From contig JAHBMJ010000447.1 in NCBI GenBank assembly GCA_018398765.1, positions 1 through 47,846 of the forward strand: a stretch of 47,846 nucleotides of DNA. The letters are read 5' to 3'. Positions 8,178-34,401 of this stretch are shown here, piece after piece. Position 1 is the first letter of the stretch; the number at the start of each line of letters is the position of its first letter. The notes under the pieces are model-generated. The model was not told where the DNA came from and made no database searches. It saw only the letters and a program-made list of their open reading frames with translations. The translations under genes were made by a program, and so were the position numbers. The stretch is from Chromera velia (lineage: Eukaryota; Sar; Chromeraceae).

Positions 8178-8372
8178 TCATAGAACGAAGAAGAGTTCCG
8201 TTCTCTTGTACGACCGCTGTTTCATTTTCCGAATCTCGTCAAGTTGCAATTCTTCAGGCAGCCCCTGCAGCATGATCTCGTGGTCGGGTGGGAGCTTCGG
8301 GAAGAAGGCCACCAACGCGTCCTGGTGCCCTATGTAGATCTGGTTGTAGATGCGCCAGTAGACCTCCCGAAT

Positions 8373-8439
<67 letters not shown>

Positions 8440-11400
8440 CGTACATTCATCATATTCAGCAAATGAGAAACAAGAGTTCAAACGGGAACACAGACTACCC
8501 AAAAGGCCAAGACACGAAACAGAGAGGGTCAGCCGGATACAGAGAGAATGGTCGTAGAATACTGCCTTCACGCCACAAAACTCGAAGACTGCCGTTCGGG
8601 GGCCCAAAGAGAGAAAGAACATACTACTCAATTCCCTCACACACGGCCCACTGACCCTCCTTGCAGGGTGCCACAGTCCCCTCATCACATAGTTCAGCAT
8701 CACACCCGCCCCCAGGGACACGCGGAACCCGTCCACTGCATCGAACACGGCCTGCAGAGAGAGAAACAAACAAACAGACAGACGGATGAAGAAAAAAAAG
8801 TCCGGCAGTCGATTGGTCGGTCGGGCAGGTCGGAAAAGAAAAAGATTTTTGGGGGGAAGACTTGAGGGACCCAGAGAGGAAAGCTAGGCGGAAAGAAGAA
8901 GACTTGGACATCTCCCGTCGAGATTCGGAGGTGGGGGGCAAAAAGACCGCCATGAAGAACAAACACGGGAAGGCAGACAACAGAGCGGGCAGGCAGAGAA
9001 GGAAAAGGAGAGGCAGGCAGACTGCAGACCTGAATGAGGTGGGGAGAATTCTCGAAGATGTTCGGCCAAACAAAGTTCAGGAGATGTTGCAGAACCTCCT
9101 CGCACCCTAGTCCCTGGACCCCCAGGGCCAAGTGTTTGCACGCCCACGTTGCGGTCTGTCGGTGCACCAGGTCGCGGTCTGTCAGGGCATCCTCGAGTAC
9201 AGGGACGGCTGTATACACATAGTCCTGCAGCCAGACAAAGAAACAGAGGGGGTTCATTGAAGATCTTTTGGCCTCGACAAAAGCATGTATGGACAAATAC
9301 GAACCCAACAGATACCAGGAGGAGACAAGGAAGCGGCGGGAAGCAAGCAGAGGTATACCATGCTATTCTTGATGGCTTATAAACTGAGAGAGACGCCCTC
9401 ACTCATTTGCTGTCTGCCCGACTGACTGACCTTCCCCATTTCCCCGATGTACTCAAACATGAAGGAGAGGGACTTCAAAACTCCATTCCGAACGTTCAAC
9501 TCCGGCACCTTATACTCCTGCATCAGGGCAGGCAGCACCGTGTACGGCCCGCACGTCTCCGCCACGATCGCGATCGCCACCGTCGTGCACACACGGAGCT
9601 GTCGCTCTTGGACCTGCAGGGGAGAGGCAAGGAAGCAAGAAAGCCAGTTATTCATTTCAAGAATCTTCACAACGGTCTGAGTCCTGTGCAGGCGTATGAG
9701 AGTGTATTTTGGGCAAATCGGTGGTTCTTGCAAGGAGGATGGGAAGAAACGCATGGAAAATAGTGGAGGGAAAGGAGGGAAAATCTGATTCTGCGGGAGT
9801 GAAAAGACGAGAGAAGGAAAAACTGGAAACCCCAACAGTTCCAGGATAGGTGAAACAGACAACATCCGAAAACCTGCTCGGTGTCTTCTTCGCTTGAGGA
9901 CACGCAAAAGAAAATTCAAAGTAATGCACACGTCCTGCCTGTCTGACCTTCAAGTTATTCAACAGTGTCGCGATGACGTCATGGGGTCCGATGGCTTTGG
10001 CAATGTACCCGAAGGTGTTCACTGTGGCCCTGCGGATTGCCTTCTTGTGGGCCTGCAGGGAGGCAGGGGAACGGAAGCGAAGGGAAGGGAGAAAGAGAGC
10101 GGTGTAGCGAGAAACGTGACGGGGCATTTAAATACAGAGCAGAAAGGCGTGTTTCGCTGTCCTGCTGCCCGGCAAATGGACTCGAACAAAAAAGTGAAAG
10201 AGCCGAGACAAAGTCCAGCTGCTGGTCGAGTGTACGAAGAGAGAGAGAGAGAGAGAGAAGTAAAGGAAAGATGAGAGGTCAGGCGACTTTTTTTTGACTC
10301 TTCCTTCGCACCAATTAGAGACAGACCTTAAGGAGTTCGAGGAGTTCGAAGCAGATGCGGTCCCATTCTTTGGGAGAGATCATGTCTGCCCCCCTGTCTG
10401 CGATTCTCCCAACCAGATCGATGCAGTTCTCCTGCACCTTCTCGTGCCTGTTCTTCAAGATCGGGGTCAGTCTTGGGAGCAAGTCCTTGATGGGAGGCTG
10501 CATGTTCTGCATCCCGATCACGTTCACGATTCCCTTCAGGGCACCCAGAATGGACCCGAGCACCTGAACGGAGAGAAAGGAAGCGAGGGAGGGAAGGAAA
10601 AAAAAAATGTACCTGCACATCTACTTGACAGGCAACAGATGAAAGGGTTGGAGGACCTTGCTTCTTTCTTTGTCTACGCTGCACCCCAACATTCTCAGCC
10701 GGGAGGTCCAACGGAAGGCACTACCCCCCCCCCACCTTCCGACTCGCTGCACAGACCCCTGTTTACACATTCTAAATCGACAACAAATAATCAGCGGACC
10801 GAGCACAAATGTACACAAACCCGACCCTCCCTGCCTGCCTACTGACGCACGCACCTCAGGATACTCCTCCCCCAGGTATTCGTACAAGAAGAGACCCAAG
10901 TTCGCCAACAGCGTCTCCTCCTCGCACAGCTTCATCACCCCAGCAAGTCGAGCAACCAGGTCGGCTGCCTGCTGTCTCACACGCGCATTCGGCACGTTGA
11001 GGCGCCACCTGACCATCCCGCCAATCTGGGGCAGGTACGGCTTCACGCGTCTCCCGAGGCAATTCACGATGGTGCCGAAACCGTTCAGCATCACAGACGT
11101 GTCGTCGCTTGACTGCACGACCGGTCACATGGAAGGAACACAACACGAGGTCATCTATGCCAAGAAAACCGCGCGTGAATAGAAAGAAAGCGGGCGTCTC
11201 CCTCGCTGTTTCCCTCGAGGATAAAAAACCAGCAAGCTGTCAGCCAGAAAGCCGAATTGAAAAGATGATTGGATAGAATGGCAGAGAGGAAGACAAACAC
11301 TCGGTCACGACGTGCAGCCAGCAACCGTTTCCGACAGACTGAAAGACTGCCTATCTCTCTCCCTCACTCACTCACTCCCTGACCTGTTCCTGGAATGCGT

Positions 11401-14400
11401 AGATGATGCCATCAATGAGGAGTTCCTCCAGCCTGGAGTCCACATCTGCCAGCCCCAGGTTGGAGGCAACCTTCTCGATTGTCTCCACGACCATCTTCCT
11501 GTAGGGCTCGCTGCCGTCCTTCAGGTCCTCCACGATCCGACTGATGATGTCGGCACCCCCAACCTGAATTGGTTCGGGCAGGCAAGCAGGCAGGCCAATG
11601 AACGAACGAACAGAAACACGGACAGGCATGCATGGAGGAGGGATGACGCTCCGCCGTCCCATACACAAAAAATGGAAAGAACTGCTACGGATGCATGAAA
11701 GAAGGGACCCACGGGATGCGTAGAATTCATGGTCATCTTGCGTGCTAGAATGTTCTGAGTTGACACGGCTCTTTCCCCAAAACTCTTCAGCCCCAGTGGA
11801 TGCATCACCGGTACCCCCGCGTGACCCACCGACCGACCGACCGACCGACCGACCTTGTTAGCAAGTTCCACAGTTGTGTCCACCAGCTGTCGGTAGTTCC
11901 TCCTGTCCAGAGCGTTCCTGACCACCCAGAAAGAGGAGAAGTAAGCAGGGAGCACCTCCTCACGGACGTACTGAGGGTCGACTCCCTCTGTGCCAACGCA
12001 CTGCTTCACGACCTTCAGAACGATCTTCTTCATCTCCTCATCCGGCGTTGCGAACTCTCTGCAAACAAACAAATGAGGGGGGGAGAGGTGGAAGGAACGA
12101 CGCAAGGAAGGAAACAAATGCAACAAAGGCCGCGGAGAGGGAGGGCTTTGATGCGATGCCGACCGACTGTCGAGACACTGCACACGAACAGGAACGAGAA
12201 GACGATGCGGCGAGGGTGAGCATCGACACGAATCACTGTTCAGATGAATGGCATTTCGCACGCAAGAAGAGCAACACTTGTCACGAATGGCAGGAATAAA
12301 GCTTGGTCTATCTCCGAAATGCCTGAGAGGAATAATCAAAGCTGCTTGCCACCTAACCGACCGAACGAGGATGACCATCACCTCCCGAGTGTAGTAGTTC
12401 GCGTGGTCGGGGTCCATCAGGGGAATGATATACCCGATGGCCTTCAGAAAAGCGGCCAGGCCCTTTCCCCTGTGCTCAGTGATGCCGGACCACAGGGGAC
12501 GGAGCACGGAGTCAAAGCACTCAATCCCGTAGGGAGTGGCGGCTTCAGCAAGGGCAGCAATTGCGAGAGCAGTGATTGTCCTCACCTGCCAGGCACACAC
12601 GCAGGCAGGCACACACACAGGCAGAGGGGCGGGCAGGGAAGCAGAGGGGCAGAAAGGGAAGATCGTCATTGTTTGAAAGCACACAGACACACAGAGGAAG
12701 ATAGATTAGACACTTTGAACGAGAAAGAGACGAAAGCAGACTGACGGATCCATTTTTCAAATCTTCTCTGCATTTCCGAGTCCCGCCCCCCTCTCTCTCC
12801 TTTTGCGCATCCAAACGCCTCTTTCTCATTATCGAAGATTCACCACACCTCTCGCCCCCTGTCTGTCTGACTGACCTTCTGCTCCTCATCCTGCAGACCG
12901 TGTTGGATGATCTGCACGAGATCCTTCAGGTGAGGGAGGACCGCACACCCCACCTCAATCGAAATCTGCTGGACAATCTTCACACCTGTGTGTCGGGCCT
13001 GCCAGCTCTTTTTCGATCTGCACACGGCCCGGAGGAACTGAATCAACGTGTTGATGCCCAAAGCAGAGGCCACCACTGCGAACGCCTTCGCTGTACAGTT
13101 CCGCACGTACTCGTCGGGATGATCCAAATCGGGGCGCATTGTGGCAATCATCGTTGCCAGACCGGCGGCCTTGGCGAGGTTCGAGATCACTTCCTTGCCC
13201 TCCTGTCGGGCGTAGTAGTCTTCATCGATAAGCATCGGCTCGATCACCACCAAAATCTTGTGGACGTACGGACGGACCTGCAGATCCAGAGGCGTACATC
13301 CATCTCTATACTCCTTTCTTCCAGCGCAATCAAATGAATGCAGCGACAGGGAGAAACAAAAAAAAAAGAGGGGGGGCAGGTAGATCAACAGGGCTGCAGG
13401 ACTCCTCTTCTTCCTATTTCTTTCATCACCAAGACAAAAATGGAAGGAAAGAGAAAAAATCAAGCAGAAGAAGAGCAAGATGCACCTCATCCTCCAGTTT
13501 ATGGAGCACCCTCTGGATGCACTTCACCAGCAGATGTCTCTCCTGGTCCTCCAAAGTTGAGGACATCATCAGGGGCAGAATCTGCACACACTCACACACA
13601 CACAAAGGAATAAGCACTTGAGAACCAGGAAGGAGAGGCGTACAAAGGGCCACACAGAGGCACACTGATCGACAGAGGCACATCAAAACGACAAAGAGAA
13701 TTTCAGAAAGGCTTGCAGGAATACGCGCGCCAGGAAGAGAACACGACTTCCTTCGCCTCCTTCTGTGTTTATGCGAGTACATTCCAAATATGCAGATACA
13801 CAGACTAAGACGAACAAACCCACAAACACAAAGAGACACAGAGGTCGACGCACGCACGCAAGCGCACAAACCTGATTGAAGAGAGGCCCCGGCCCGAACT
13901 CCCTCGCCTTGTCTTGCAGTTGCCTGAAGGCAGACCGCCTCATCGGGGGAGTCCCGTTTTTGATCTTCAGGAGGATTCGCATGATCTTCCTCTCCTTGAT
14001 CTCAGTGGGGGACAGCGACTTTTCATCGTCGCTCGATAGCAGTTTGCCTGCAGGGAGGGAGGGAGAGAAACAGAGAGAAGAAAAGGATCGTTCAGTCTGG
14101 CGCATGCATGTCCTAATAGAAGATCCGCATGCATGTACTAATAAAAGGAGCATGCAATCATGCAGACATGCGTACCGACGCAGAACGATGCCGCTAAAAC
14201 GGGCAATGAGGCGGGAAGAAGACGCAGAATGGAATGGAAGAAGTCAGACAGGCACATAACTGCGCAAAAAAATGGGTTGAAGGAAAAAGAACCAACAGAA
14301 CGATTGAATTAACAAACGCACTCACTCACTCACTCACTCACTTACTGACCAAAGTACTGCATATCCTCTGGTTTGATGTCTGGCAGTTCCCCCCCGGCCA

Positions 14401-16885
14401 CAGCTGCTCCATGTTCCTCCGGGAGCGCGGTGGGACCCGCACCCTCCATGGTGACCTTGGTGGCCTCCGGAATTTGGTACAGAGGTGTGGCACCCATCGG
14501 CGTGGCCCCCATGAGGGAGGCTGCAGTGGGCCCAGCCTTCCTGACGGGCTGGTAGTCCTTGGGGGGTTGGACGATTTCGTAGCCCTCCTTTGGAAGGATA
14601 GCGTCCAGCTCTGCGTCTGTCATGGGCAGATTGCGTGCGTCAACGTCCCGAGTGATGGCAGCCTCCTTCATGGCTGCAGGGGTCATCGGGGTGGCTGGAG
14701 TCATCATGCCGCTGGGCATTCCTGTCATTCCCTGCAGATAAGAGAAGAGAAAAAAGAGGGGGGGGAGGGGGAAATGAGATGGAGGGAAGAGGCAGACCGC
14801 TTTGAAGCCAGCTGTTCCTTAGAAGGCAACTTGTTAGGGGAAAGAACAAAGCAGAACAGTTCTCTGCTTCGCCTTCGGACTTCTGGTGCGCGCGTGTATT
14901 TTCCTTATCTTTCTGATGGGATGTCAGGCTTTCAAGAAGAAAACGGAATTTCTCCACAGGAACGCCCAAAAGAAAAACTTTTCCCTTCTCATCAGCACCT
15001 CTTACTCCCACAAGACCGTCTGCTGACTGACCAACGGTGTCTGTCCAAAGGGAGTTGCCCCTGGCGTCATCCCCCCAATTCCCGGTGTCATCCCAGGTGT
15101 CATGCCTACAGGGGTGATCCCCCCCATCGCCATTCCCCCCGGGGTCATCCCCTCAATCGGGGTAGCGTCCCATCGGGAGGAACGCCTCTTACTCGGCCCC
15201 GCCCCTGCGGCAGCCGCGGCCGCCCCTGGCGTCTCCCCCCCCCCGATCATGGGGGTCTCCCCCCACGATCCAGGCAAGGGCGTCTCCCCGAGCATCGGCG
15301 TCTCCGACGCAGAGTGCCCAGGGGTGCCCTGCACGCAAGCACACACACACTCACACTTCGTTCGTTCACGCGTTCAGAGTTCTAGCGTCATGCGGGCATG
15401 CACCAAAAACAATTCCTCTGGATTCTCCCGAAGAAAAGAGAAAACGACACGCTCCCTTCCAAGGTACAACCAGTGGATTGAGTCAGCCCCTCACTCATCG
15501 AGCACTCTTTCATGTCATGCAGCCAGTAGTCTCACAGAAATGAGAACGACAGACACAGAAAGCCAAGGAAGGAAGAAAGACAGACTGACCCCCCACGACG
15601 GCGTTTCCATCCCTTGATTGATCATCGGCGTGTCCCAACGGGAGACGCCATTGGCTCCTCCTGCGCCTCCAGACTCTGCAGGTCGAAGGAAGGAAGGAAG
15701 GAAGGAAGGAAGGAAGGGAGGAAGGAAGGAAGAAAGGAAGGAAGGAAGGAAGGAAGGAGGGAAGGAAGGAAGGAAGGAAGGAAGGAAGGAGGGAAGGAAG
15801 GAAGGAAGGAAGGAAGGAAGGAAGAAGAGATTCCATGGAGTGTCGGAAAGGAGGAAACAGAGAGGAAAGGAGAGAACAGAAAGAGAGACAGAGTGGGGAG
15901 ACAAGTAAGGGAAGGAGAAGAGAAGTACACACCCCGTCATCTATCTTCTCTTTCCCTTCTGGTTCTAAATCGATGGCTGCACCACTCGATGGATGGATGC
16001 AGTGAATTCATTCATTCTCTTTCTGTCTGTCGCCTCGTCTCGCAAGGACATGGGATGAGAGAGTCCCTCGGCCTGCTGCCCCCTCTCATTAAGACAAAGT
16101 CATTTCATTTCACGAACCGCATTCGTCCCCCTGCTCTCCAAATACAAAGAAAGAAATCGAAGGCAGCCGGCCGGCCGACACCCCAACGGACCTTCCGTTG
16201 TCTGGTCCCATCTTCTTTTCTTCTTCGCCTGCTGCACCGCCCCGTTCGTTGCAGCCCCCTCCCCTCCCTCCCCTGCAGCTGCTCTAATGACTCCCTCGTC
16301 CCTCTTCTTCTGCAACTTCCGCTGGATTTCCTGTTTCTCCTTGTCCAGCTCCTGCTCTTGCATAACGTCCGCATGCGTCCTGTCATCCCCCGACGGTCCC
16401 CTGCCCGCAAACGGATCGGCTCGAGGGGGGGACAGCATGCGGTCGTGCATCTGTCTCTGATAAGCATTTTGCCGCGAAAAAATGGACTTGTCCTTGCGGG
16501 AATCCTCCAAAATATCTGGAACTTCCTCCTGCTCCTCGTCCGCCCGCTGCATCTCCTTAAAGGCATTCTTTGAAGTGCTGTACGTCGCGTAATTGTGTAT
16601 GCGGCTCTGGGCCTGTTGCTCCATCCTCAGCTCCATGGCTGCTGCCTCTGCGTCTGTGGGCAGCTCCGAAACGTACTGCCCTCCTCCTCCACCCATCATT
16701 CCCATCAAGGACTCATCCTCCATTGGAGCGTCGGAGAGACTCACGTCTGCAGAAAGAGGAAGAGAAAAGAATAAATACGTTAATTCTTGCAGGTGTACTC
16801 CTACTCCAACAAAACCATGCACCCACCCCGAACAACGGTGAGTGCTGGCACTGGATGTACCTTTCCGCTTCTGCGTCTTTGACAT
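8178..16885 (-). CDS. SF3B1: Splicing factor 3B subunit 1 (SF3b155), complete, 18 exons
   Basis: Core of the SF3b complex in U2 snRNP; clamps the branch-site duplex in the nucleus. Exons in transcription order: 16861-16885, 16192-16746, 15590-15675, 15032-15328, 14350-14731, 13872-14047, 13486-13581, 12876-13277, 12362-12585, 11854-12058, 11384-11563, 10855-11112, 10327-10563, 9948-10052, 9431-9613, 9030-9224, 8656-8751, 8178-8372. They sum to 3897 nt, 1298 residues plus TGA, against 1304 in human. All phases agree and split codons complete conserved residues (for example REF across exons 9/10). The N-terminal half has DPFA, three RWD/TP U2AF-ligand-like motifs (RRWDQT, SRWDTP, SRWDAT) and TPG repeats. 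HEAT repeats follow, with near-identical blocks such as [42 protein letters not shown] and [20 protein letters not shown]. The K700-equivalent Lys (DEEQK) ends exon 8. C-terminus is [10 protein letters not shown], like human YIRYELDYIL. Start ATG encodes MSKTQKRK. Confidence 0.97.
8373..8440. repeat. (CA)n(GA)n microsatellite abutting last SF3B1 acceptor
   Basis: On the transcribed minus strand this reads (CT)n(GT)n GCAG directly joined to the last SF3B1 exon at 8372, so the repeat itself forms the pyrimidine/GU tract of the 3' splice site. Confidence 0.9.
15676..15834. repeat. (GGAA)n microsatellite in SF3B1 intron 2
   Basis: About 150 bp of GGAA units with few interruptions. On the minus strand it reads (CTTC)n GACCTGCAG, immediately before exon 3 (acceptor at 15676-15681), and serves as the pyrimidine tract. 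Long frames reading [11 protein letters not shown] here are artefacts of the repeat. Confidence 0.9.
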
Positions 16886-18280
16886 GAAAGAAGACAGTTG
16901 AGAGCGAGAGGAGAGGGAGAGGAACCCTCGCTACTTAGAGGAGGCAAGGGGGGAGCCAGCCACTCTCTCTCTCTCTCTGTGTCCCCAAGGAGACTTCGAA
17001 CGAGGGAGTGGGTGGGATCTTCGACAAGGGAGGGAGATGGGCAGAAAGGATCCCGTCTCCAGGTGAGACACACAGAGTGACAGAAAGTTGGGCATCGACG
17101 GAGAGAGGGGCAAACCGACAAAACAAACAGAACGAACGGACGAACGGTCTGTGGGAGGACAAAGCGGAGACGGAGAGGAAGTTAAAGAGAAGACGCGAAG
17201 AGGCTCGTGTGAACCCGCGCACGTCCTTGAACGCCTACAACCCGATGGCTCTACAACCCAAAATTCAGAGAAGAGAAGAGAAGAGAAGAGAGGAGGGGAC
17301 AGGAGGGGAAAGCAGAACGTAGGAACATGGACAGACAGAAGGGTAGGTTGATCAAGCTCAGAGAGAAGAAGAGCAGGTCTGCCCCAACTCTAGCACTCAC
17401 CTTTCCGAACCTCTCCGTGGCCGTTCTGCATGGCGGCTCTAGAATGAGTGAGAGGCTTTTGCTTTTTAAAAGACCCGAGTCGTATGCAATCCTCGCCAGA
17501 CCGACTACCAGTCTGTCTGCCTCACTGGAGGGTTTTTCGGGAGTCCTCCCCTCCAGTTTGCTGCTGGACGGAGAAACAAACCACTGCTTCCCTCCCCCTG
17601 GCCACTACCTATACAGGTAGAAGAGGCAAGTGAGGGATAAAGGACCGGGAAACAGTCAAAGTGCTAGGCAAAGAGCAGCTATTTTTGGGTTTTTGTTTTC
17701 TCCACGAGACGGAAAACTGACACAGAAATTATGCGGGAAAGAAGTCTCGACCTCACTCCTTGATCAAAAAGCTTGCTGTCGTATTTGGAGAAGGATTAGA
17801 AAGAATTCACAAGTTCCGCCTCAGAAACTCCACAGAGTGCATGATTTAAGACGGAACATGGCAGATTTATGGCAGAGTTTCCATGAGTTTCCCTCATGTT
17901 TCCCTCACCTTCCTTTGAACCGGGCACTTCCAAAAAATTTGCGAACGACGTTTGTGCGTATATTTTCGTGCCCCCCAAGCAGCTTCATTGTACTGATGAG
18001 CGCGTGCGAGCTGTCCCGTACTATCCCGTACTTAAAAATGAGTATACCATTGAACCAACTGTCATTTGGCAACTTGCCTCAGCGGCTGTTAGGCAAGTTG
18101 GTGTTCACATGTGTCCACAATAGCTGACTTCTTTCAATGCGGAGTCTGCTTCACGTGGAATTCAAGGTATGTAAGCTGAAGTGGACGAGCGTTCATTTGT
18201 AAGAGTTTGTCGGCAGTCAGACTGATTGAGTCGAGTGCACGTGACACACGAGGCCAGTCAGTCAGCTGGGTGATTCGAAA
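16886..18280. promoter_or_regulatory. Shared divergent intergenic region SF3B1 / UPF2
   Basis: 1395 bp between the start codons of two head-to-head genes. No coding sequence recognised; open frames at 17327-17620 and 17630-18127 lack homology or splice support. It must hold both promoters, but no TATA box or initiator can be assigned. It contains a (CT)n tract near 16963-16978, GAAGA-type repeats near 17263-17290, and a perfect hairpin at 18070-18100. Confidence 0.6.
18070..18100. other. Perfect 10-bp inverted repeat (hairpin) upstream of UPF2
   Basis: CAACTTGCCT at 18070-18079 and AGGCAAGTTG at 18091-18100, separated by 11 nt. It lies 181 bp before the UPF2 ATG, in the presumed promoter or 5' UTR. 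It could be a palindromic factor site or an RNA stem-loop; the sequence does not distinguish them. Confidence 0.6.
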
Positions 18281-23398: not shown

Positions 23399-23438
<40 letters not shown>

Positions 23439-23458
23439 GTGTGTGTGTGTGTGTGTGC

Positions 23459-23494
<36 letters not shown>

Positions 23495-26400
23495 AAGCAG
23501 ACTGCCGACTCTGCGGATTCCCCCCTCTCTCTGTCTGCTGAGGCGGGTGAGAAGGAGAACGACAAGAAGGGGACTGAAGAAGAAACAATAACAGACGATG
23601 ACAAAAAGAAAGAGAAGGAGAAGGAGACTGATCTCTTGAGCGCCGCAGCGACGCCTTTCGACCTCTTCCTCCTCAATCTATCAGTTAGTAGACTTACACC
23701 TGCAGGGACTTAGGGCCGTTCGTTTTTCTTCCCGCGAACCCGTTACATTCTGAGCTAGCTCTCTTCCCTGCATAACGCGTCATGCCGCTGTATGGCTTGT
23801 GAAAGGTTGTGTGCCTGCATGCATGGGTCTGCAATTCCCCATACAGACAGACCACTGTTGTCAGACAGACCACTGTTGTCTGTCTCTCTGTGTGTGTGTC
23901 TGTCTGTCTATCCGTCTCTCTGTCTGTCTATTTGTCTGGCTGGCTATCTGCTGTCAGAAATACTTCCGAGGCAACCATTCGATCGATTCTTTGCTGTGAG
24001 GTTCAACTATGTCGCTGACCTCTCTCTCTCTCTCTCTCTCCCCCCTCCCCTCTGTCTCTGGCTTCCCTTTTGTGTGCTTTTCTTCCCACTTTGCTTCCCT
24101 CTTCTTGCCAAGTCACGGAGGAGAGGCTGCTGTCGAAGAGGCCCCTGATCTCCTCATCATGTTGGCATCATATCATTCTCTCTCTCCGCCTCTGCAAGCA
24201 ACCCTCTTCTCCTGTACGGCTCTTCCCCATGCAACGAACGCTTTGGTTGCAGAGAACAGAGCCGATCGCAGAGGAAATCGACAAGCTCGCAGAAGAATTC
24301 TTCATGCAGATGAATTCAAAAACAAACAGGCAAGGAGGGNNNNNNNNNNNNNNNGGGGGGCAAATACGAGGATCCTTCCTTGCGCTTGGTTTTCTTGTTT
24401 TTTATGTATACTTGCTTGAGTGCGATAGAGCGTCCTGGTCTGTTTGCTCTCTGCCTTCCTCGGCCTTTTCGCGTCATCTCCCCTATGTCGCGTGCGGAAA
24501 GAGACCAAGTGACCACAAAACTTCATGCTGCTCCTTCAAGTGATCGCTGTGCGCTTCTGGTCCTCCAAACTGCCTGACTGCGTGTGGTGTGTGCAGGAAG
24601 AAACTGGCATCCCATCTTTGGGGGAACAGACGGAGGCCCGACCTGAACCTCCTGCCTGTCTACTCCCGCTTCATACGCCTCATCCATCCTTATTGCAGAG
24701 AGGTTGGAGGGAGGGGGAAGGGAATCTTTGTGTCTGTGCGTTCTTTGAGTTTTCGTCCTTTTGAGTGGGTCTATCAAGTTGACTGAAAACTGAATGATTG
24801 CGCCCACACTTCGTTTTTTGTATCTTTCCTCTCTCCCTCATTGCAACGCACAAAATGGCCGTCTGACCATGTCTCCCTGACACATGTACCTCCACACGTG
24901 CAGGTGGGATCTTCCGTTCTGTCTGCCCTCCAGAAAGAATTCGCAGCGCTGCTGAACGAGAAGAATCCCACAGAGGCCGCACTCGACGCGAAGGTCTGTT
25001 TTTTGTTGGTGGAAGAGAGGAGAAGGGAGGGGAGCAATACAGATCCTAGACGTGGAGAAAGCGTATGTGTGCTTCTTTTCTTTGTATAAGGGCATTTTTG
25101 GACAGACAAGCATTTTTTTTTCTCCCTTTATCATTTAATCTGTTCATTGAATCACCCGTACAAATAAATGTGCAGATCAAGAACGTTCGTTACCTCGCTG
25201 AGCTTGTCAAGTTTGGCGTTGCCCCTGCCGGGTTGATCCTCGATGCCTTCGGGAGGATGTTGGATGACTTCACTGCACATCACGTTGAGTTGGCAGTCAA
25301 TATCTGTATCGTCAGTCTCTTTTGGGGAGAGGGGGGGGGATGTGGTTGGGCATTCATGTTTAAAATCTTTTTGGTGCCCCCAGGTGATATGTCGTGGATC
25401 GGTGGGCTCTTTCCACGCATCTGGGTTGAACCTTGATTTCTCTTTTTTTGTTTTGAGAGTCGGTGCATCACAAATCGTCAGGGAGGTCTCGGGAGTTAGC
25501 GATGACATGGGCGTGCGGGCGTGCGGAGCTGGTTTCCGCAAAACATCTCTGCCTGTCGGTGTGCGCGCATTTTGTTTTTTCTTTCTTAGATGCGGAGAAG
25601 CAATGATTTAGCCTAGAGATGAGGTCCTGTTCATTTCGGCAGCTACTCTCTGTCTTCCACCATCTTCCTTGAAATATGTCTGTCTGTTTTCTTCCTTGCA
25701 CGCACAGCCTCTCCCTCTGCTTGCATATTCCTGCAGGGCTGTGGGCGCTTTCTCATGTATACAAAGGAAACGAGCACGCGAACCCAGAATCTCCTTGATG
25801 TCAGTCTGTCAGTAGAAACGCACTTCAGTTTTCCTTACGGTTGCTTTGTGGGTGTTTATCGACTCTGCGGTGTGCTGCTATTGGGCTTTGCTTCCGTGTG
25901 ACAAATCAGCACTTTCTGCCGCTCCCGGTTTTGTCTCTTTTTCGTGCTCATCTCGCCGTGTTCTTTTTGTGTGTGCAGAAAATGATGAGACTAAAAAGCG
26001 CCCGCTCAGTGTCGACACGGCTGGAGGTGATGATCGAGGATGCGTACTTTCAGGTGTGTATGTGTGTGTGCGTGTGTGTGTGTGTGTGGTTCTGAATTTG
26101 TTTGTGTGTGCATGGAGGGGTAGAGATGTGGTGACCGTCTTTTCCTCGCATTGCGCCTGTGAATGTTCTTGTCTGCCTGCCTGCCCGCCTTTTTGCCTTT
26201 CTGCTGATGAGTCCCTGTCTCCTGTTTGTTTGTTCTTTTTTTCATCCTCTCCTTCCTACCGCCTCCTGTCCTTCCCCCTCCCTTCCTTGGCGACTGCAGG
26301 TACGCCCGACGGAAAGGAAGAAAGTGGTTCTGAAAGAACGCCCCGTGATGAGACAATTCATCGATCACGTCGTCCATTCGATGGTGTACAAGTCAGTCAG

Positions 26401-26915
26401 TCAGACGGACAGGTAGGCAGGCAGGCGCTGATGGGTCGCTCACCCATCTCGCTCGTTCGTCGATCGATAAGTTGTCGTGTCGTCGTCTTCCTTTACTTCA
26501 CTCCCGGCCGTCTGGAAACCTGCCTCTTGCTCGTTTTCTTTTTCTTTTTATTCACTTCTCAGTAGAATGGATGAATGGCCGATTGATTGCATGATTGAAT
26601 GAGTTCGTGAATGGAAAAACGGACGATGCAGAGAGGACGAGGACTCGGTGCTCAAGCTGATTCGAAAACTTGACTGGGGAGACCCGAAGGTCGTCAAGTG
26701 GCTGAGGAAAGCGATGCTCGGTCGGTCTGAAACAGACAGGAAGGACTACAGGAGACGGGTTTGGATGTCTGCAGAGCACCCTGCTCTTTTGTTTTTCGTT
26801 TCTTTTCTCACACACAAACCACGTATTCCTCTTCTTTGCGACTGCTGGTGAGCACTCGCCCTTCCATCTGCATTGCGTCATCCAGTCTGTGTCCGCATTT
26901 CGGGCCGCGCCTCAC

Positions 26916-26950
<35 letters not shown>

Positions 26951-29900
26951 TGCGTGTGCGTGCAGACCTGGACATGCATGGCGACTACGCGCGTCTCCAC
27001 TGCCTGGCCTGTCTTCTTTCTGGCCTGGCAAGGTACAGGGACGCGTTCGTGATAGAAGTCATCGATGGTCTGATGGAGGACATTCAGGTCAGGCAGTTGA
27101 GTACTAACTCATTTACTTTTTTACTCGCACACTTGTACGACTGCATGACTTGCTCGACATGTTGGAGGGGAGAAGGCCAGCATGAGGAACTGCGCTTTTC
27201 TTCTCTTCTAGTTGGCAGGACGCCAGTTGCAAAGGATGAGCGTCAAGCTTTGACCTATTGCTTATGCATTGATGAATGGACTGTGAGACTGCCTTGGTGG
27301 CTGGCGCTTTGGAAAGGGTGTTGGGCAGCGAGCTCCCTTTCCGAGTGATCACTACTTCTGTGCATCTGCGTGTCTGTCCTCTCTCCCTCTCTGTGTGTGT
27401 GCAGGTATCCCTAGAGAAGGCAGATTTTCGGGAGAGTCCCAAGAGAGTCAGGCAGGTGCGCCTGTTGGGGGAGCTGTACTGCTACAGGTCAGTGCGTCTC
27501 TTTTCTTTTCTGCGTGTCTCTCTCTCTGTGAGTCTGGCTATCTTCTGCACTCTCTAAACTCGAATTCCGCGGAGGGAAGTGAGTCGTGCTCAGGAGGGAA
27601 ATGTTCTTGGTCCCTCTCTCCTTCTGTCTTGTTGCAAGCAGGCTTGTAGACTCTGCCGTGATCTTCGACTGTCTCTATCACCTGATCGGACTCGGGGGAG
27701 CCTCTGCGTACCAGTGCGGGTCTGCCAAACACGCGGCGGCACTGATGAATGAGAATCAACGGATGGACGAAATCCACGCAGGTCAGTCAGTACGTCTTTC
27801 ACAAAGGACTTTTCTGAAGGCCGTTCATTCAGAGTGTCTGACATAAGGCTGACGGACTGGTTGCAACCGTGTAGCAGTGATCGCCTACACGCTTCCTCTG
27901 TATCTGTGTATCTGCGTGCTTAGCTGAACATGTCTTGGTGAAGACGGATGCGGTGGACGGCACATCAGGACTGTTCAAGATGAATGTGTTGCTCCTGCTT
28001 CCCTTGCGCTTGCCTGTCTGACTTCCTGCAGGAGGACTGGGAGGTCGTCCGATGAAGGCAATCATGGAGGAGGACGAGGAGGAGGGAGAAGAGGAGGCAG
28101 ACGATGAGGGTCGGTTTGCTTGAGTGGTTGAGTGGATCGTTTTTCTGGGGGCGGGTTCATGTGGGAACAGACAGATGGATGCGTAAGGGGTGGGAGAAGG
28201 AGTGGAAAGGCAACGCAGCCCTTGACTTGACGAAAGCAAAGCTTGCCGTTTCAATTCATTTGTCGTCTCTGTCCAACTCGCCCCCCGGAGCGGAGTGCAT
28301 CTGTACACAACATACCAATACGTGAGTGTATGTGGATCTGTGTGGTTTTGGTACACGGACCTAGACTTCCTTCCAAGCATTAAAGGCAGCTTCATGTGTG
28401 AATGTCTGGGGACGTTTTCTGCTTTTTTTTTCCTCGTCTTTTCTCTGACTGAACAAATCGGGTATTCTCTCTCATGGCTGGAGCTTTTTCTTTCGTAGTT
28501 TGACTCTTGCTGTTAGACATGATCCCATGCTTCTTTCTTTCCCTGCCCTGTTTCTCTGCAGAAAAAGAAAAGCTGGGAGACTCCACTGGCCCTGCGGCAC
28601 CTCTTTCAAGTCAGTGAGACCCCCTCTTTCTTTCTCCTCTCTGTGTCGCCTTCTTGCATCACTCAAAAATGGAGTCTTCTAAAGAGTTTTATTCCTGCAT
28701 GTGCCTGCTGATGTTGCACTTCTTCCTCTCCACGGTATGATTTCTTTTTTTCTCCTTCCTCTGATTTGTTCCCTCTCCAGTAGGTTTGAAGTGTCTGTCT
28801 CTTTGTCTCTCTCTGTCTGTCCATCTCCCAATCCTCTAGCTGCACGAGTGTGCCTATCTGCCAGCTTCCCTGCCTGCCTGCCTGCCTGCCTGCGTACCTC
28901 ACCTCTTCTTGGTTTCTGCAGGGGAGATGCTCCGCTACTTGTGGAACCCCATGGCCCCGTTCGAGCCTCCCAACGACTTCTTTCGCATCCGCCTCGTCTG
29001 CATGATTCTGCAATCGGTCGGTCGGTCGGTTGCTTGGTCGGTCGGGGGGAGTGAGTGAGTGAGGGAGGGAGGGAGGGAGGGAACATGTGGTCGTCTGATT
29101 TATTGGAGACGTCGGGGGCACAGTGGAGAAGCCCTTGGTAGCACCCGACTTGCTTTTGACCTTCGGATCGAAATAGGCATTTGACTTTGTTTGTATTTGT
29201 GCAGATAGGGCAGTACTTCTCAAAAGGAGGCGCCCGTGTGAAGCTGGACAGGTGGGAGGGATGACACGCTGGTTCAGTGGGTCTTTCGCCCTCTTTTGAT
29301 TCTGTCGAGTTTCTTCTCATTCGATCATGTTTCTTCATTTTTCCCTTCCTGCTGTTTGTGATGAGTGATCAGTAAGTGATAAGTAATAAGTGATTTATTG
29401 GTGCCCTAGGACACTGTCGCCGTTTTATTTTTTAGAGGTCGCCCCCGATCCTCCGAAGACCGTGCCCTCCCTTCCTCCGTGTTCTTCTTCGCCTTCTTTG
29501 AATCCTTTCGTTCGTTTGTGTACATGGATGTATGAGAACAGTTCCTTCCAGCAGCTGGTTTGCTGAACTCTTTTGGCTTCTGTGCAAATTTGGAAGGTCG
29601 CGGCTGCATGTATGCGTGCATGTGCGTGTTTCTGTGGCCCGTGGATGATACAAATGAGTGCGTTTCTCCTTTCTGTTCTTTCAGGTTTCTCCTCTTTTTC
29701 CAGAGATATCTCCTCTTCAGGGTCAGTCCATGAATCTGCATGCATGGAAAGATTGAAGAAATCTGAGATGGAAAGATTGAGTGGGTAGGTGATGATGATT
29801 GCGAGACAAGCACTGAAAGAAAAACCAACCGGCTTTCCTTGTCCTTTTCCTTTCCTTCAGCAGAGGTTGAGAGATCATAGTCGTTTTAGCCACAGTCATC

Positions 29901-30015
29901 CGTGGACTCTCTGTGTGTAGGTCTCTGCCCTTGACCGTCGTTTTCTCTCTCCTTCATTCAGTCTTGCTGCCTGTCAGATGACAGCCAAACTCTCCCTCTG
30001 TCTACCTCTCCCTCT

Positions 30016-30046
<31 letters not shown>

Positions 30047-31786
30047 CCTCTACCTCTCCCTCTCCCTCTCCCTCTCCCTCCAGTGATCGACGGCCTTCTT
30101 GTATGTTTCCTGTATGTACGTTTTTGTATCCCCCTTGCTTCCCCTCCCTGGCTCCCCCCTCAAATCCTGCAGGGCCAACTCCCCATGAGAGTCGGGCACC
30201 TGGTGAAGGACACCATCGAGGACCTCAGACCTCAAGTGAGTGAGTGAGTCTGCATGCCAGTGCGTGCGTCAGTGAGGGAGGGGCTTGGTGGTTCTGAGGG
30301 CAGGCATCATGTGCGTGTGTGGGGTTGTGAAGCTTCTTTGCATCACGTTGGGGTTCAGGTTCATTTGAACAGTAGGGAAGAAGTGATTCTGTGTCACGGG
30401 AGGATTTCACTCTTGCTTTGCCTCCTTTCTCTTGTCCCCCAGTTTTTGTTTGTTTATTGGGCTTCGATCTTACTTGACAGTCCTCCGCTGTGGCTGTCGG
30501 TGCACGCACGCTTCCCCCCGTCTCACCTTTTCGCGCTCTCTCTCTCTCTCCCTGTCTCTCAGATGGTGCTGCACAAGACTCTGGAGGAGAGCGACGATGC
30601 GATCCTCTTGGTTCTGCAGGAAGAGGCCAAACACCTGCAGGTGAGGGGGGAGTGGTCAAGGGGGGGGGTGGAAGGAAGCTGATTGGATGAGGGCGGAAGG
30701 GGCAGTCCGTCTGTCCGTTCAAACGTTCGTTCCTTATTTTTTCATCGCATACAATTGGGCCGCCGTCGTGACGGTAGAAAAGACAAGTGGAAGGAACCCT
30801 TCCTCTCTCTCTCTTTTTATCTGTCAGGTATGAGAGGGTCGGTCCTTTAGCTCTGCATGTGCATTCCCTCCACTCTCTCTCTGCTTGTGTGTGCGTGTTC
30901 GTGATTGCGTTGCAGGACGGGGATGAGGACGGGATCGGAGGGGGTGATGATGAGGGAGAGGAAGAGGAGTCAACAGAGGAAGAGGAGAGCGAGGAAGGTC
31001 GGTCGGTCGGTCGGTTTGTTTGTCTTGGCTTCTGAATCAACCGTTTTCTTTTCTTTTGTCTCTCTGCCTGTCTGAATGGATGGAACAGAAGGCCTGTTTC
31101 GCTGTCGTTCTGTTTGCCTTTTTCCCATGTGCCGATGAATTCACCCAACCAATCGCTTGTCCCTCTGTATGTATCAGAAGGATCTGTATTCATTGACTGT
31201 CTTTTTTCCTGCCGTTCAAAATCTATGGCGACACAGTATGTGGCCTCGTTTTTGTTTTTTTTTTGGTTCGTCGTTTCCCCACATGCTCGTCCTTGTCACG
31301 CCCGATGCAGCCCTTCTCATCAGATTTGCCCCTCCCTTTCTATTTTTGCTCCTGGTTGTCTGACCCGACTTGCCTACCTGGCTGCCTGCCTGAATTCAGG
31401 AGGGGATTCCGATTTGGACTCTGAGGATGAAGACGCAGACGGGGCAGACGACGAAAACGAGGAGGACGATCCGGACTATGACAGGAAGAGAATGCAGGTG
31501 GGGGGGGGGGGNGGGGGGGGGGGGGGCTGCATAGTGTCTGCGTGCGCTTGCGTTCTTTGCTTGTCTGACAATTTCTCTCTGTCTGTCTATCGACTGTCTG
31601 TCCGTCTGTGCAGGCGGCAGAAGAGGAGCCCGACGAATTCGAGGAGGCAATGAAGGATCTGATCAAGGACTCTCTCGTGGAGGCCCGCAACCAGGGAGCA
31701 TCCAAGAGAATGGTCAGACAGACAGACAAAGGGGGGGGAAGGAGGGACAGGCGGGAATACACACACACACACGCGCGCGCGCGCGC

Positions 31787-31819
<33 letters not shown>

Positions 31820-32610
31820 GTAAGGCAGGACACAGGGGGGAAGCTTCGGAAGACAGACTTTCTCCTCGCATCTCTGTTTCTGCAACAGGTTTGGCGGTGA
31901 AGTTTTTGACCTTCTCTTCTGGTGTGTCTTCTGCCGGATCCGGGTCCATCCCCCTGGGGCAAAGGAGCGGCAGAGAAGCTGCACTCTCTTCTTTTCTCTG
32001 TCTCTCTTCCTCTTTGGTGGACCTTCCTTGTGAACACTCTTCTCTCTCTCTCTCTCTCTCTCTCTGTGCATATCTATCTCTCTGCAGTTCACCCAAGGTC
32101 TTGCAGTCGCACAGTCAAAGCGCGGTAGCGGGAGTCAATTTGTGATTGAGAGCGAGAGGGACGGAGACGGCAGCAGAGCGGCGGGGGGACATGTGCCTGC
32201 ATCGGTAGGGGGGGGAGGGCGGGTGAAGGGCTTTGTGCATGTAGGGGCTTTAGTCGCTAATATTTCTTTTGATTCGTTCTCTCTGCGCTTCGCCTCTTTT
32301 CTTTCCACTTCATCCGTCAGTTGGGAAAGAAAGACAGAGGAACGAACGAACGAACGAACGAGGAAGAGGGTCCATCTATCCATCCATCTATCCATGCACA
32401 CTAACTGACTGCCCCCTCTGATATGATGTTTTGTGTCCTGCATGCATGGGCATTCATTCGAGCTTTTCTTTTTCTTTCTGCCTGCAGAGCGACGACGGAG
32501 AGGGAGAAAGGGAAGGGATGACTGACGGAGAAGCTCCGAGGCAGAGTGATGACAATGAGGAGGTGTGTGTGGATGATTTCTCTCTCTGTCTCTTTCTCTC
32601 TTTCTCTCTG

Positions 32611-32645
<35 letters not shown>

Positions 32646-34401
32646 GCGTGTGCGTGTGAGTGCGTTGCCCCTACCAACCTGGTACTTAGAGTTGGATTCC
32701 AAAGTCCCAGAGTGTCAATTGTCTCTCTCACACATTGAAGCTTGAAGAAAAGAACCATTTCCCTTCCTCCCCGTCCCTTTTTGAGTTCTGCAGAGTGCGG
32801 TTGCGAGGTCCCGCACGTTTGTTCGTTTTGGTCTTTTGCGGAGAGGGGGGGGCGTGAGGGGGGAGGTGAGGGTACCGACATCGGACAAGCTCGTGAGATC
32901 TGCATTTGCAAAGAGGGCAGGAGAGGAGAAGGAGAGGGAAGAAGTCAAGTCGAGGGTCATGCAGGTTGGTACGTAGGGATGGGCGACGGAAGCCTGTCCG
33001 GTCTTGAGTGTGCGTGTGTGAAAGAGGGCTATGGATTCTCGTCGTCTCCTTTTTTTTGTTTTTCTCCTTTTTTTCCCTTCTCGCTGCTACTTTTGCTTGA
33101 ATCCATGGGAGCAGGGCGAGGATGCATTGAGGGGGCAGCAGAAATGAAGGTGGGTGCATCCATATGAGCGTGCCTGTAACAAAGCATCACATCATGCACC
33201 GGACTCAAACAAACAGCCGTCTCTGTAATCAGCAATTGCGAGATCCAAACGCTGTTCGTTCGGTTGCTCAGGCAGGGAATCAAAACTTCTTTCTGTCCTT
33301 CGGGACTGGGGAGGACTAGAGAAACATTCTTGATTTCTGAACGCAATTGTCAGATGATATTGCAGAGAGAGAAGTATTTTGTTTCTGGCCTTTGAACTTC
33401 CCTCCCTGTGGGCAGGCTGTGGGGAGACAGGAGGAGGCAGGCTACTCATACATTTATTCTGTTCTTTAAAAAGAATTCTGCATGAAAATAAATGCATGCA
33501 GGCTGTGGGGAGACAGGAGGAGGCAGACTACTCCGAGAAGATCCAGAACCTTCAGACAGCAGGGTTTTTCGTGGGGGGGGAGAGGGAGGGGGGACACGGG
33601 CACCGGAAGAAAAAGGGACACTCGGTAAGCTGCCTTGTTTCTTTTCTTTCTCCGGTCTGTTCTCCATTCCTTCATTGATCCCTTCGTCCATCCACTCATT
33701 CCTGAGAAGTGAAAGAAAGGAGAATTGACCTGCCAACATTTCATGACTTCACAGACAGCTTTTCCCGGCTCTTGCGGTATTCTTTTACTGTAAGTGTTAA
33801 TTGCAAAGTTCCTCTCACTTACACGCGGATTACCGCTCTTCGTTGCAACTTCTTTGTTGCATTTCTTTGCAGTCTACGTCTGAGTGTCCACATTTCAATC
33901 GAATGAAGTGAAGCTTATCCGCCTTCTTCCTCGATCCTTGTTTTTTTGCTTGTCCTTGTAGAATGAATCGGCCTTGATAGTCTAGATGAAATGAGGAAGT
34001 TCGATTTGATTTGATTTTTTGTTCTTTGACTTTTTTCCTTTGTTCCTTCAAATTGCAGATGTACTCCCAGCCTGGGGAGGGACAGCCACGTCAGTCGAAG
34101 ATCATGGTCTTTTGGGGGGGGGGGACTGCAAAACTCTGGCTCGGCGTTTCACATTCGATTGAACAACGGAAAATCTGAATGGTTCTTCTTCTCTCTCCTT
34201 GCATGTCGTCTCGTCTTGGTTGTGCCTCCGCGTCTGCTCCTGGGTAGCCTTTTTTGTTGGATCGAGTGCGCGGATTAGAAGTTTGAATTTTGTTTTTTTC
34301 AATGTTTTTACCCGCACCACTTCTGAGACACGCGATGGCTTCTGTGCGTCTCTGCAGGGACAATGCATCTGACATATGGGAACTTCCGGCGGCGAGGATA
34401 G
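18281..34401 (+). CDS. UPF2: Regulator of nonsense transcripts 2 (UPF2), 39 modelled exons
   Basis: Bridge of the nonsense-mediated decay complex; in characterised UPF2 the MIF4G domains scaffold, the third binds UPF3 and the C-terminus binds UPF1. About 1438 residues plus TAG at 34399-34401. ATG at 18281. MIF4G-1: exons 1-9 (LEELADAVSELNFK, FLLVGELYLTGVF, YQELRNAHQ). Linker: KWEDAGDRKFYEDVLDLKD plus a Lys/Glu-rich tract. MIF4G-2: exons 12-20 (EEIDKLAEEFF, RKKLASHLW, KNVRYLAELVKFGV, CGRFLMYTKE, LKLIRKLDWGDPKVVKW). MIF4G-3: exons 21-30 (HCLACLLSGLARY, RLLGELYCYRLVDSAVIFDCLY, FFRIRLVCMIL, KLDRFLLFFQRY, LPMRVGHLVKDTIEDLRP). Acidic region: exons 31-33. UPF1-binding-like C-terminus: exons 34-39 (ARSRTFVRF, RQEEADYSEKIQNLQ), ending GNFRRRG like human TGGRRR. 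Identity is firm; weakest are exons 4-7, the choice at the exon 5 and 19 donors, and whether another exon lies between 31712 and 32088. Confidence 0.94.
19321..20035 (+). repeat. ~710-bp (CTTT)n/(CTTG)n satellite in UPF2 intron 3
   Basis: Intron 3 (19321-20073) is almost entirely CTTT and CTTG units with occasional GTCT and CTTC. It contains higher-order repeats, for example a segment near 19740-19840 recurring near 19865-19970. Open frames on both strands reading FLSFFLSF or KERKKERK are repeat artefacts. Confidence 0.95.
21059..21118. repeat. (GT)n then (CCGT)n microsatellites before UPF2 exon 7
   Basis: A GT dinucleotide tract of about 30 nt is followed by CCGT units and ends at the GTGCAG acceptor of exon 7 (21134). 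Confidence 0.9.
21512..21622 (+). repeat. 40-bp perfect direct repeat spanning the UPF2 exon 8 donor
   Basis: 21512-21551 and 21583-21622 are identical, offset 71 bp. Each copy contains the last codons of exon 8 (GCCATGTCGAG) and the GTCAGC donor. The first copy is in frame with the conserved reading; the offset is not a multiple of three, so the second copy lies in another frame and the first frame meets a TGA between them. Confidence 0.9.
22772..22816. repeat. (GT)n in UPF2 intron 10
   Basis: GT dinucleotide tract, 35 nt before the CTGCAG acceptor of exon 11 (22852). Confidence 0.9.
23383..23494. repeat. ~110-bp (GT)n in UPF2 intron 11
   Basis: GT dinucleotides with ATGT interruptions, running straight into the GTGCAAGCAG acceptor of exon 12 (23501). 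The tract forms the entire 3' splice-site region. Confidence 0.95.
24340..24354. other. Assembly gap, 15 N, in UPF2 intron 13
   Basis: Run of 15 undetermined bases starting 11 bp after the GC donor at 24330, flanked by G-rich sequence. Confidence 0.99.
26919..26949. repeat. (GT)n before UPF2 exon 21
   Basis: GT dinucleotide tract ending about 16 nt before the GTGCAG acceptor at 26965. A shorter (GT)n starts at the exon 18 donor (26054), where the GTGTGT donor is itself part of the repeat. Confidence 0.9.
30001..30081. repeat. (CT)n/(CCCTCT)n in UPF2 intron 28
   Basis: Pyrimidine-only tract of about 80 nt made of CT dinucleotides and CCCTCT hexamers, within the intron upstream of exon 29. 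Similar CT tracts lie at 32041-32066 and 32603-32642. Confidence 0.85.
31498..31527 (+). repeat. Poly-G tract with one undetermined base after UPF2 exon 32
   Basis: The donor GTGGGG runs into about 25 G residues with one N at 31512. Length is therefore uncertain. Similar G runs lie at 33579-33586 and 34114-34124. Confidence 0.9.
31758..31814. repeat. (CA)n(CG)n(GA)n compound microsatellite in UPF2 intron 33
   Basis: Three adjoining dinucleotide tracts, CA then CG then GA, between exons 33 and 34. The alternating CG/CA portion could adopt Z-DNA. Confidence 0.85.
33412..33533 (+). repeat. 36-bp direct repeat duplicating the 5' end of UPF2 exon 37
   Basis: 33412-33447 and 33498-33533 match with one mismatch (G/A at 33441/33527), offset 86 bp. 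Both contain a GCAG acceptor and the first codons of the exon (AVGRQEEA). Only the second copy continues into the conserved DYSEKIQNLQ; the first hits a stop after about 17 codons. Confidence 0.9.

What the first reader, a model, noticed from the sequence alone, without database searches (positions are those of the whole stretch)
8178..34401. Atypical 5' splice sites: cytosine at +3 (GTCAGT / GTCGGT)
In the 61 introns modelled here (17 SF3B1, 38 UPF2, 5 left gene, 1 right gene), 36 donors start GTC and only a handful start GTA. In SF3B1, where exon ends are fixed by near-identical protein, it is 13 of 17. In most eukaryotes +3 is a purine that pairs with U1 snRNA and faces the U6 ACAGA box. 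A C-rich +3 with retained G at +5 suggests a lineage-specific donor code and perhaps altered U1 or U6.
Basis: partly seen in the sequence, partly recalled or inferred. Interest (0 to 1): 0.8.

Follow-up and report, generated by a model that had tools for sequence, protein, structure and literature searches.

The report
Cytosine-rich splice donors, ordinary splicing RNAs
In this probable algal genome about two thirds of the introns that could be checked against known proteins begin GTC (typically GTCAGT) instead of the usual GTA or GTG, yet the small RNAs that read that signal look ordinary, so the odd start signal is real but its cause is open.

Summary
With an aligner that treats every GT donor alike, 25 introns fixed by homologues of solved structure (SF3B1 13, HSP70 5, kinesin-13 5, UPF2 1, PFK 1) have +3 C in 17, G 5, A 2, T 1, with -1G and +5G in 24 each. 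Background after GT-N-N-G is 31% C; p = 2e-4. A self-trained gene finder with +3 unmodelled gives 64 C of 140 introns on 16 sampled contigs. The proposed cause is not supported: the one full-length U1 gene found begins AAACUUACCUG, seven of seven U6 matches keep ACAGAG, two of two U5 keep GCCUUUUAC. The two U1-like sites with the compensating G that I fetched lack the rest of U1 and read as donors on the other strand. The genome is probably Chromera velia (inference). Best mechanism: normal U1 tolerates a +3 mismatch held by -1G and +5G, while +3 C may pair with the U6 ACAGA-box G; that last step is inferred and only weakly backed. My searches listed no paper on Chromera nuclear donors. No transcripts were available.

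The parts
8178..17431 (-). SF3B1 gene (SF3B1/Hsh155 subunit of U2 snRNP); the gene finder gives 19 exons, but it mis-sets the intron ending at 11564 and splits the one at 10564-10854 in two, as the protein alignment shows
18281..34372 (+). UPF2-like gene, 38 predicted exons; the MIF4G-3 region matches human UPF2 structures
14048..14349 (-). intron, donor GTCAGT, protein-fixed
13582..13871 (-). intron, donor GTTTGT, protein-fixed
13278..13485 (-). intron, donor GTGCAT, protein-fixed
12586..12875 (-). intron, donor GTCAGT, protein-fixed
12059..12361 (-). intron, donor GTCGGT, protein-fixed
11564..11853 (-). intron, donor GTCGGT followed by more GTCG units, protein-fixed
11113..11383 (-). intron, donor GTCAGG, protein-fixed
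10564..10854 (-). intron, donor GTGCGT, protein-fixed
10053..10326 (-). intron, donor GTCTGT, protein-fixed
9614..9947 (-). intron, donor GTCAGA, protein-fixed
9225..9430 (-). intron, donor GTCAGT, protein-fixed
8752..9029 (-). intron, donor GTCTGC, protein-fixed
8373..8655 (-). intron, donor GTCAGT, protein-fixed
14732..15031 (-). intron, donor GTCAGT, less conserved part of SF3B1
15329..15589 (-). intron, donor GTCAGT, less conserved part
15676..16191 (-). intron, donor GTCCGT, less conserved part
16747..17400 (-). intron, donor GTGAGT, gene finder only
27488..27641 (+). UPF2 intron, donor GTCAGT, protein-fixed

Best explanation
The introns are ordinary major-spliceosome GT-AG introns whose donor consensus has shifted to AG|GTCAGT. 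Shown: +3 C in about two thirds of protein-fixed donors, and canonical U1, U5 and U6 interaction sequences in the copies found. Inferred: U1 first binds through -2/-1, +1/+2 and +4 to +6 and tolerates one internal mismatch at +3, which the near-invariant -1G and +5G offset. After hand-over to U6, the C at +3 can form a Watson-Crick pair with the fourth base of the ACAGA box (G44 in human), a base that +3 A or G contacts only weakly elsewhere. So the third intron base would be tuned to U6 rather than U1, without any change in the sequence of either RNA.
For: Protein-fixed donors: 17 of 25 +3 C, 24 of 25 -1G, 24 of 25 +5G, 20 of 25 +6T. Gene-finder introns on sampled contigs, +3 unmodelled: C 64, G 37, A 30, T 9 of 140; the commonest hexamer over all 209 introns is GTCAGT, 41, against GTGAGT 11 and GTAAGT 10. 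AGGTCAGT is seen 12 times against 3.9 expected in 166,650 sampled bases, both strands. U1 5' end AAACUUACCUG in the one full-length gene, U6 ACAGAG in 7 of 7 matches, U5 loop GCCUUUUAC in 2 of 2. Family matches for SNRNP27 and the U1-C zinc finger (that family also rings in E. coli in the control). [quoted passage not shown]
Against: No transcript evidence. Predicted U1 duplex energy (unmodified bases, register not forced) of +3 C donors is weaker: mean -4.9 against -7.5 for A, -7.7 for G and -5.8 kcal/mol for T, so the mismatch is not fully made up elsewhere. The energy model gives almost no U6 gain: mean -2.1 against about -1.6 kcal/mol, and for GTCAGT itself -1.9, the same as GTAAGT; only GTCTGT gains clearly (-5.0) and that hexamer is 8 of 209. 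If U6 pairing drove the choice, +3 C should be commoner where +5 is not G; the trend is the other way (+5G in 90 of 99 +3C donors and 90 of 110 others, p = 0.07). In the gene-finder set +3 A is also above background (30 of 140 against 12%). HSP70 has +3 C in only 1 of 5 donors. That other eukaryotes with the same U6 do not use +3 C is recalled.
Confidence: 0.37

Rival explanations
1. Selection for a weaker U1 duplex: donors carry one mismatch to U1 at +3 or +4, whichever base it is, so that the site leaves U1 easily; the C itself has no partner, and U1-associated proteins supply the missing stability.
For: In the 25 protein-fixed donors +3 C goes with a +4 purine and other +3 bases with a +4 pyrimidine (15, 2 against 1, 7; Fisher p = 5e-4); only 1 of 25 is GTRAG. 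Iwata and Gotoh 2011 (PMC3033335, sections 5 and 9 read) describe abundant GC-AG introns with a canonical U1 5' end in two algae and suggest RNA modification or U1 snRNP proteins.
Against: The +3/+4 link is not significant in the larger gene-finder set (p = 0.13), and it rests partly on one HSP70 gene. GTGAGT and GTAAGT do occur in that set (11 and 10 of 209). It does not say why C and not T is the favoured mismatch.
Confidence: 0.3
2. Composition and microsatellite origin: intron starts are GTNN tetranucleotide runs (GTCA, GTCG, GTGA) that expanded at the donor; +3 C reflects the repeat units and not recognition.
For: Several donors run on as GTCAGTCAGT or GTCGGTCGGT. Lag-4 identity is 0.40 at +7 to +36 against 0.35 in mid-intron (166 introns), and GT sits at +9 in 21% of introns against a 6% background. 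GTCAGTC-type words are enriched in the sampled DNA.
Against: The lag-4 signal is modest and is stronger at intron 3' ends (0.45). Genome background gives 31% C after GT-N-N-G, far below 17 of 25.
Confidence: 0.17
3. A variant U1 with G opposite +3 exists but is missing from the assembly or too divergent to be found.
For: Only one full-length U1 gene was found; the held contigs (177.8 Mb) are smaller than the published Chromera assembly (193.66 Mb, PMC4501334), if that is the organism; the covariance search scored only 41 of 2442 candidates.
Against: A 155-base U1 query found five loci; four keep the 5' end or part of it and none has G at that place, the fifth lacks the 5' end. A pattern open at both positions found 10 sites with up to one mismatch; three are known U1 copies, I fetched the two with ACTGACCTG and they lack the rest of U1, and five were not fetched (one of these, on C588, has a G there and a mismatch at the next base).
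Confidence: 0.1
4. Gene-model artefact: the true junctions lie elsewhere and +3 C is an error of modelling.
For: No RNA data. The gene finder mis-set two SF3B1 junctions, and the support filter alone passed some junctions in clearly wrong alignments of light-harvesting loci.
Against: Reading frames and near-identical protein fix the junctions in SF3B1 with all GT donors scored alike. A gene-finder prior that penalises +3 C still leaves 34% C and recovers 21 of 25 protein-fixed introns against 22 of 25 for the neutral and the learned model.
Confidence: 0.03

Closest known systems
[quoted passage not shown] outline and sections 7, 9 part 1 of 2, 11 and 15 read)
   Same: Same logic of U5 (exon side) and U6 ACAGA-box pairing; canonical snRNAs.
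   Different: Here -1G and +5G are both near-invariant (24 of 25 each) and the purine at +3 is replaced mainly by C; GTRAG is 1 of 25.
+4 A to U switches in Saccharomycotina (Parker and others 2023, PMC10581693; abstract and sections 6 and 7 read)
   Same: A lineage-specific shift in donor preference without change in U1 or U6 sequence.
   Different: The shift there is at +4 and tracks loss of METTL16 and SNRNP27K; variation at +3 was limited. Here +3 shifts, SNRNP27 is found, and a METTL16-family match exists.
Abundant GC-AG introns in Aureococcus and Micromonas pusilla (Iwata and Gotoh 2011, PMC3033335; sections 5 and 9 read)
   Same: Donor anomaly with canonical U1 5' end.
   Different: The change there is at +2 in GC-rich genomes; here at +3 in DNA of about 50% GC.
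Non-canonical introns of Fritillaria (PMC13326754; abstract and section 29 read), Amoebophrya (PMC7789003; passages) and diplonemids (PMC12621601; passages)
   Same: Unusual donor sequences in particular lineages, in part with conserved U1.
   Different: Those break GT-AG; here 25 of 25 protein-fixed introns are GT-AG.

Membership tests
Major (U2-type) spliceosomal introns | GT at the start and AG at the end | tested here: met
   25 of 25 protein-fixed introns; GC donors were allowed at a cost, but junctions of the 'other' class were excluded by the filter (1 such among 41 placed)
Major (U2-type) spliceosomal introns | donor extends as GTRAGT complementary to U1 | tested here: not met
   GTRAG in 1 of 25, +3 purine in 7 of 25; +5G 24 of 25 is kept
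Major (U2-type) spliceosomal introns | U1, U5, U6 snRNAs with canonical interaction sequences in the genome | tested here: met
   U2 and U4 not searched
Minor (U12-type) introns | donor RTATCCTT (recalled) | tested here: not met
   0 of 25 protein-fixed donors start GTATCC
U6-class donor NN//GURAG | purine at +3, A at +4, G at +5 | tested here: not met
   1 of 25
U5-class donor AG//GUNNN | AG at -2/-1 with free intron side | tested here: inconclusive
   AG at -2/-1 in 19 of 25 (my count), but +5G is also 24 of 25, so the intron side is not free
Introner elements | introns are copies of one another | tested here: not met
   blastn among 15 SF3B1 introns: one 29-base match of GT-rich repeat; other genes not tested
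Compensatory U1 change | G at U1 position 6, opposite +3 | tested here: not met
   5 of 10 pattern sites not fetched; unassembled DNA not testable
METTL16/SNRNP27K-linked donor shift | loss of both factors | tested here: not met
   SNRNP27 found with QYMNRKGGF kept (that this Met is human M141 is recalled); PF05971 found in two exon-sized matches on one contig, a family that also rings in 5 of 14 bacterial and archaeal controls, so METTL16 itself is not proven

The most novel reading that the evidence does not exclude
This lineage reads the third intron base with U6 instead of U1: +3 C pairs Watson-Crick with the ACAGA-box G and extends the U6 helix, at the price of a mismatch to an unchanged U1, so the donor consensus has been rewritten by shifting the balance between two unchanged RNAs.
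Probability: 0.22. Interest if true: 0.75.

Novelty: new variant of a known kind. Interest (0 to 1): 0.5.

Why it matters
The third intron base is usually A or G (PMC11732430), which is commonly put down to U1. A genome in which it is mostly C while the U1 and U6 copies found are unchanged is a natural test of which RNA, or which protein, sets that position. It would also mislead gene finders trained on GTRAGT.

Tried and rejected
Altered U1 or U6: not found. The two U1-like hits with ACTGACCTG (L049, L050) do not continue as U1 and read as CAG|GTCAGTCA donors on the opposite strand (by eye). Introner copies: no similarity among 15 SF3B1 introns beyond one repeat match. Plastid psbA family as an identity test: no match; the light-harvesting family then gave 58 matches, and the PDB search with one of them named no organism. 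More protein-fixed introns: the polyketide synthase gene in L029 gave 0 accepted of 3 placed. Seven light-harvesting loci gave inconsistent junctions against distant references and were not counted; single junctions passed the filter there in clearly wrong alignments, so the filter alone is not enough. Without the two weakest references (UPF2, PFK) the protein-fixed set is 15 C of 23. The first gene finder merged whole contigs into single genes and was replaced. A branch-point word search gave mainly GT-rich and C-rich words. Two gene predictions in L017 look like a retroelement cut by false introns; the 13 introns of L017 (5 C) were left in the count of 140.
Full report
What the window is. 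The window lies at C446:1-47846 of a held genome of 177.8 Mb in 4040 contigs. It carries SF3B1 on the minus strand and a UPF2-like gene on the plus strand. The genome has 58 light-harvesting matches and 11 alveolin-family matches (that family also rings in one bacterial control, so it is weak alone). The published Chromera velia assembly is 193.66 Mb in 5953 scaffolds with much low-complexity DNA (PMC4501334, passages read). A photosynthetic alveolate of this size fits Chromera velia with the short scaffolds left out. This is inference; no tool named the organism.

Checking the donors. I wrote a protein-to-DNA spliced aligner in which all GT donors with AG acceptors cost the same, with GC and other ends allowed at higher cost. 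References were copied from PDB alignments. A junction was accepted if at least 4 residues were identical on each side over about 10 residues and the ends were not of the 'other' class. Of 41 introns placed in five genes, 25 were accepted: SF3B1 13 of 13, HSP70 5 of 5, kinesin-13 5 of 7, UPF2 1 of 4, PFK 1 of 12. The 16 dropped are mostly in the two poorly conserved references; of the 15 of them that begin GT, 9 begin GTC and 6 GTG (my count). Third base of the accepted: C 17, G 5, A 2, T 1. Fourth: A 13, C 5, T 4, G 3. Fifth: G 24. Sixth: T 20. Last exon base: G 24. By gene, C is 10 of 13 in SF3B1, 4 of 5 in kinesin-13, 1 of 5 in HSP70, 1 of 1 in UPF2 and 1 of 1 in PFK. Script 70 stopped with an error after printing these results; the binomial test was run (p = 1.8e-4 against 0.314). 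Light-harvesting loci and a polyketide synthase were tried too and added nothing usable.

Beyond the window. A simple gene finder was trained on SF3B1 of the window plus three light-harvesting genes and then on its own predictions, over the window, 19 of the 20 sampled contig stretches (L017-L036; L034 has only 22 bases) and, in the last run, one HSP70 locus. The donor model covered -2, -1, +4, +5 and +6 and left +3 out on purpose. It recovered 22 of 25 protein-fixed introns. Over 209 introns +3 was C 47%, G 27%, A 18%, T 8%; on the 16 sampled contigs with introns alone C 64, G 37, A 30, T 9 of 140. In an earlier round 60 of 143 were C (p = 0.005 against the GT-N-N-G background). Letting the model learn +3 gave 56% C with the same 22 of 25; forcing a purine prior left 34% C and recovered 21 of 25. 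Word counts agree in direction: AGGTCAGT 12 against 3.9 expected, AGGTCGGT 8 against 2.6, AGGTAAGT 3 against 1.7, AGGTGAGT 6 against 4.8; the highest ratio was AGGTAGGT, 8 against 1.7, possibly repeats. The gene-finder set is diluted by false introns, so the true share of C is probably between 46% and 68% (judgement). The sample is under 0.1% of the genome outside the window.

Part of the pattern is composition. After GT the sampled DNA has A only 14% of the time, so the lack of GTA is not itself remarkable; in the gene-finder set A is even above background (30 of 140 against 12%). The excess of C is what needs explaining.

The splicing RNAs. Rfam models found three U1 matches, seven U6 and two U5, after scoring 41 of 2442, 48 of 12240 and 46 of 8772 first-look candidates. 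The full-length U1 (C723:30205-30359) starts AAACUUACCUG and has the Sm-like AAUUUCUG. A DNA query raised the U1 loci to five; the other four are truncated, one of them at the 5' end too, and none has a G opposite +3. U6 keeps ACAGAG in all seven (one reads ACAGAGU) and U5 keeps GCCUUUUAC in both. A genome pattern with both critical U1 positions open and one mismatch allowed gave 10 sites (7 forward, 3 reverse) against 16 (8 and 8) for the reversed-pattern control. Three of the ten are known U1 copies. Two carry the compensating ACTGACCTG; their flanks do not continue as U1 and read as CAG|GTCAGTCA donors on the other strand. The other five were not fetched.

How it may work. With the found U1, CAG|GTCAGT pairs on both sides of a break at +3. 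Predicted duplex energy is about 2.7 kcal/mol weaker on average than for +3 A or G donors. In the protein-fixed set the exon G and +5 G are almost invariant. Reading U6 5'-ACAG-3' against +6 to +3, a C at +3 meets G, a Watson-Crick pair; [quoted passage not shown] This gives a simple reason why C could be favoured with unchanged RNAs, but the evidence is indirect. The standard energy model sees no gain for GTCAGT over GTAAGT (-1.9 each), perhaps because it cannot score the A-A contact at +4; the trend with +5 does not favour it; and other lineages with the same U6 do not show it (recalled). A rival fits the protein-fixed set at least as well: donors carry one mismatch at +3 or +4 (Fisher p = 5e-4 in 25; p = 0.13 in 209), as if a weaker U1 duplex were selected.

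What is known. Lineage-specific donor shifts with unchanged U1 and U6 are described at +4 in yeasts (PMC10581693, sections 6 and 7 read), and abundant GC-AG introns with canonical U1 in two algae (PMC3033335, sections 5 and 9 read). Searches with Chromera and splice sites, introns, U1 snRNA or spliceosomal (5 of 5, 12 of 25, 1 of 1 and 7 of 7 papers listed) listed no paper on its nuclear donors by title and abstract start. The genome paper has no occurrence of 'splice' or 'donor' at a word start in its main text; its supplements could not be looked up here. Searches (20 of 34, 20 of 31, 6 of 6, 20 of 22 and 12 of 15 listed) showed none on +3 C donors by title or abstract start. The library lacks most subscription journals.

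Verdict. The donor shift is real at the sequence level and is seen in sampled contigs as well as in the window. The proposed RNA change was not found in the assembly. The thing is a new variant of ordinary GT-AG introns, of moderate interest until transcripts and U1/U6 modification data are read.

Because that last result weakens the U6 step, the best explanation went from 0.40 to 0.37, the novel case from 0.25 to 0.22 and interest from 0.52 to 0.50, and the repeat rival rose from 0.15 to 0.17.

Noticed in passing
25 protein-fixed introns of SF3B1, UPF2, HSP70, kinesin-13, PFK: Acceptors are unusually uniform: TGCAG in 19 of 25, with G at -4 in 21 of 25 against 34% G before CAG in the sampled DNA. 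That G at -4 is not part of the usual consensus is recalled.
   Followed up: partly
L001 and L012 about 50 bases upstream of the genes; L011 on the other strand: U1 and one U5 gene share CTTCGAAAAACCGGAA upstream, and the other U5 has the related stretch CCGGTTTTTCGGAGG in reverse complement; it looks like a shared snRNA promoter element.
   Followed up: no
L013, L014, L015, L016: Four truncated U1-like copies without a complete 3' part, probably pseudogenes.
   Followed up: partly
ends of 166 predicted introns: Period-4 sequence is raised at both intron ends: lag-4 identity 0.40 near the donor, 0.35 in the middle, 0.45 near the acceptor.
   Followed up: partly
window 35085-38380 (+): Reverse-transcriptase-like open frames; the stretches 37019-37588 and 37666-38235 encode nearly the same protein, with Ns between, either a tandem copy or an assembly fault.
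   Followed up: no
window 19078-20073 and 15515-16007: Long CCTT/CTTT-type microsatellites inside the first UPF2 intron and an SF3B1 intron.
   Followed up: no
window 42861-44345 (-): Open frames that read like ankyrin repeats (by eye).
   Followed up: no
L048 (HSP70, C1522): Three of five donors have C at +4 (GTACGT twice, GTGCGT once) and only one has C at +3, so this gene differs from SF3B1 and kinesin-13.
   Followed up: no
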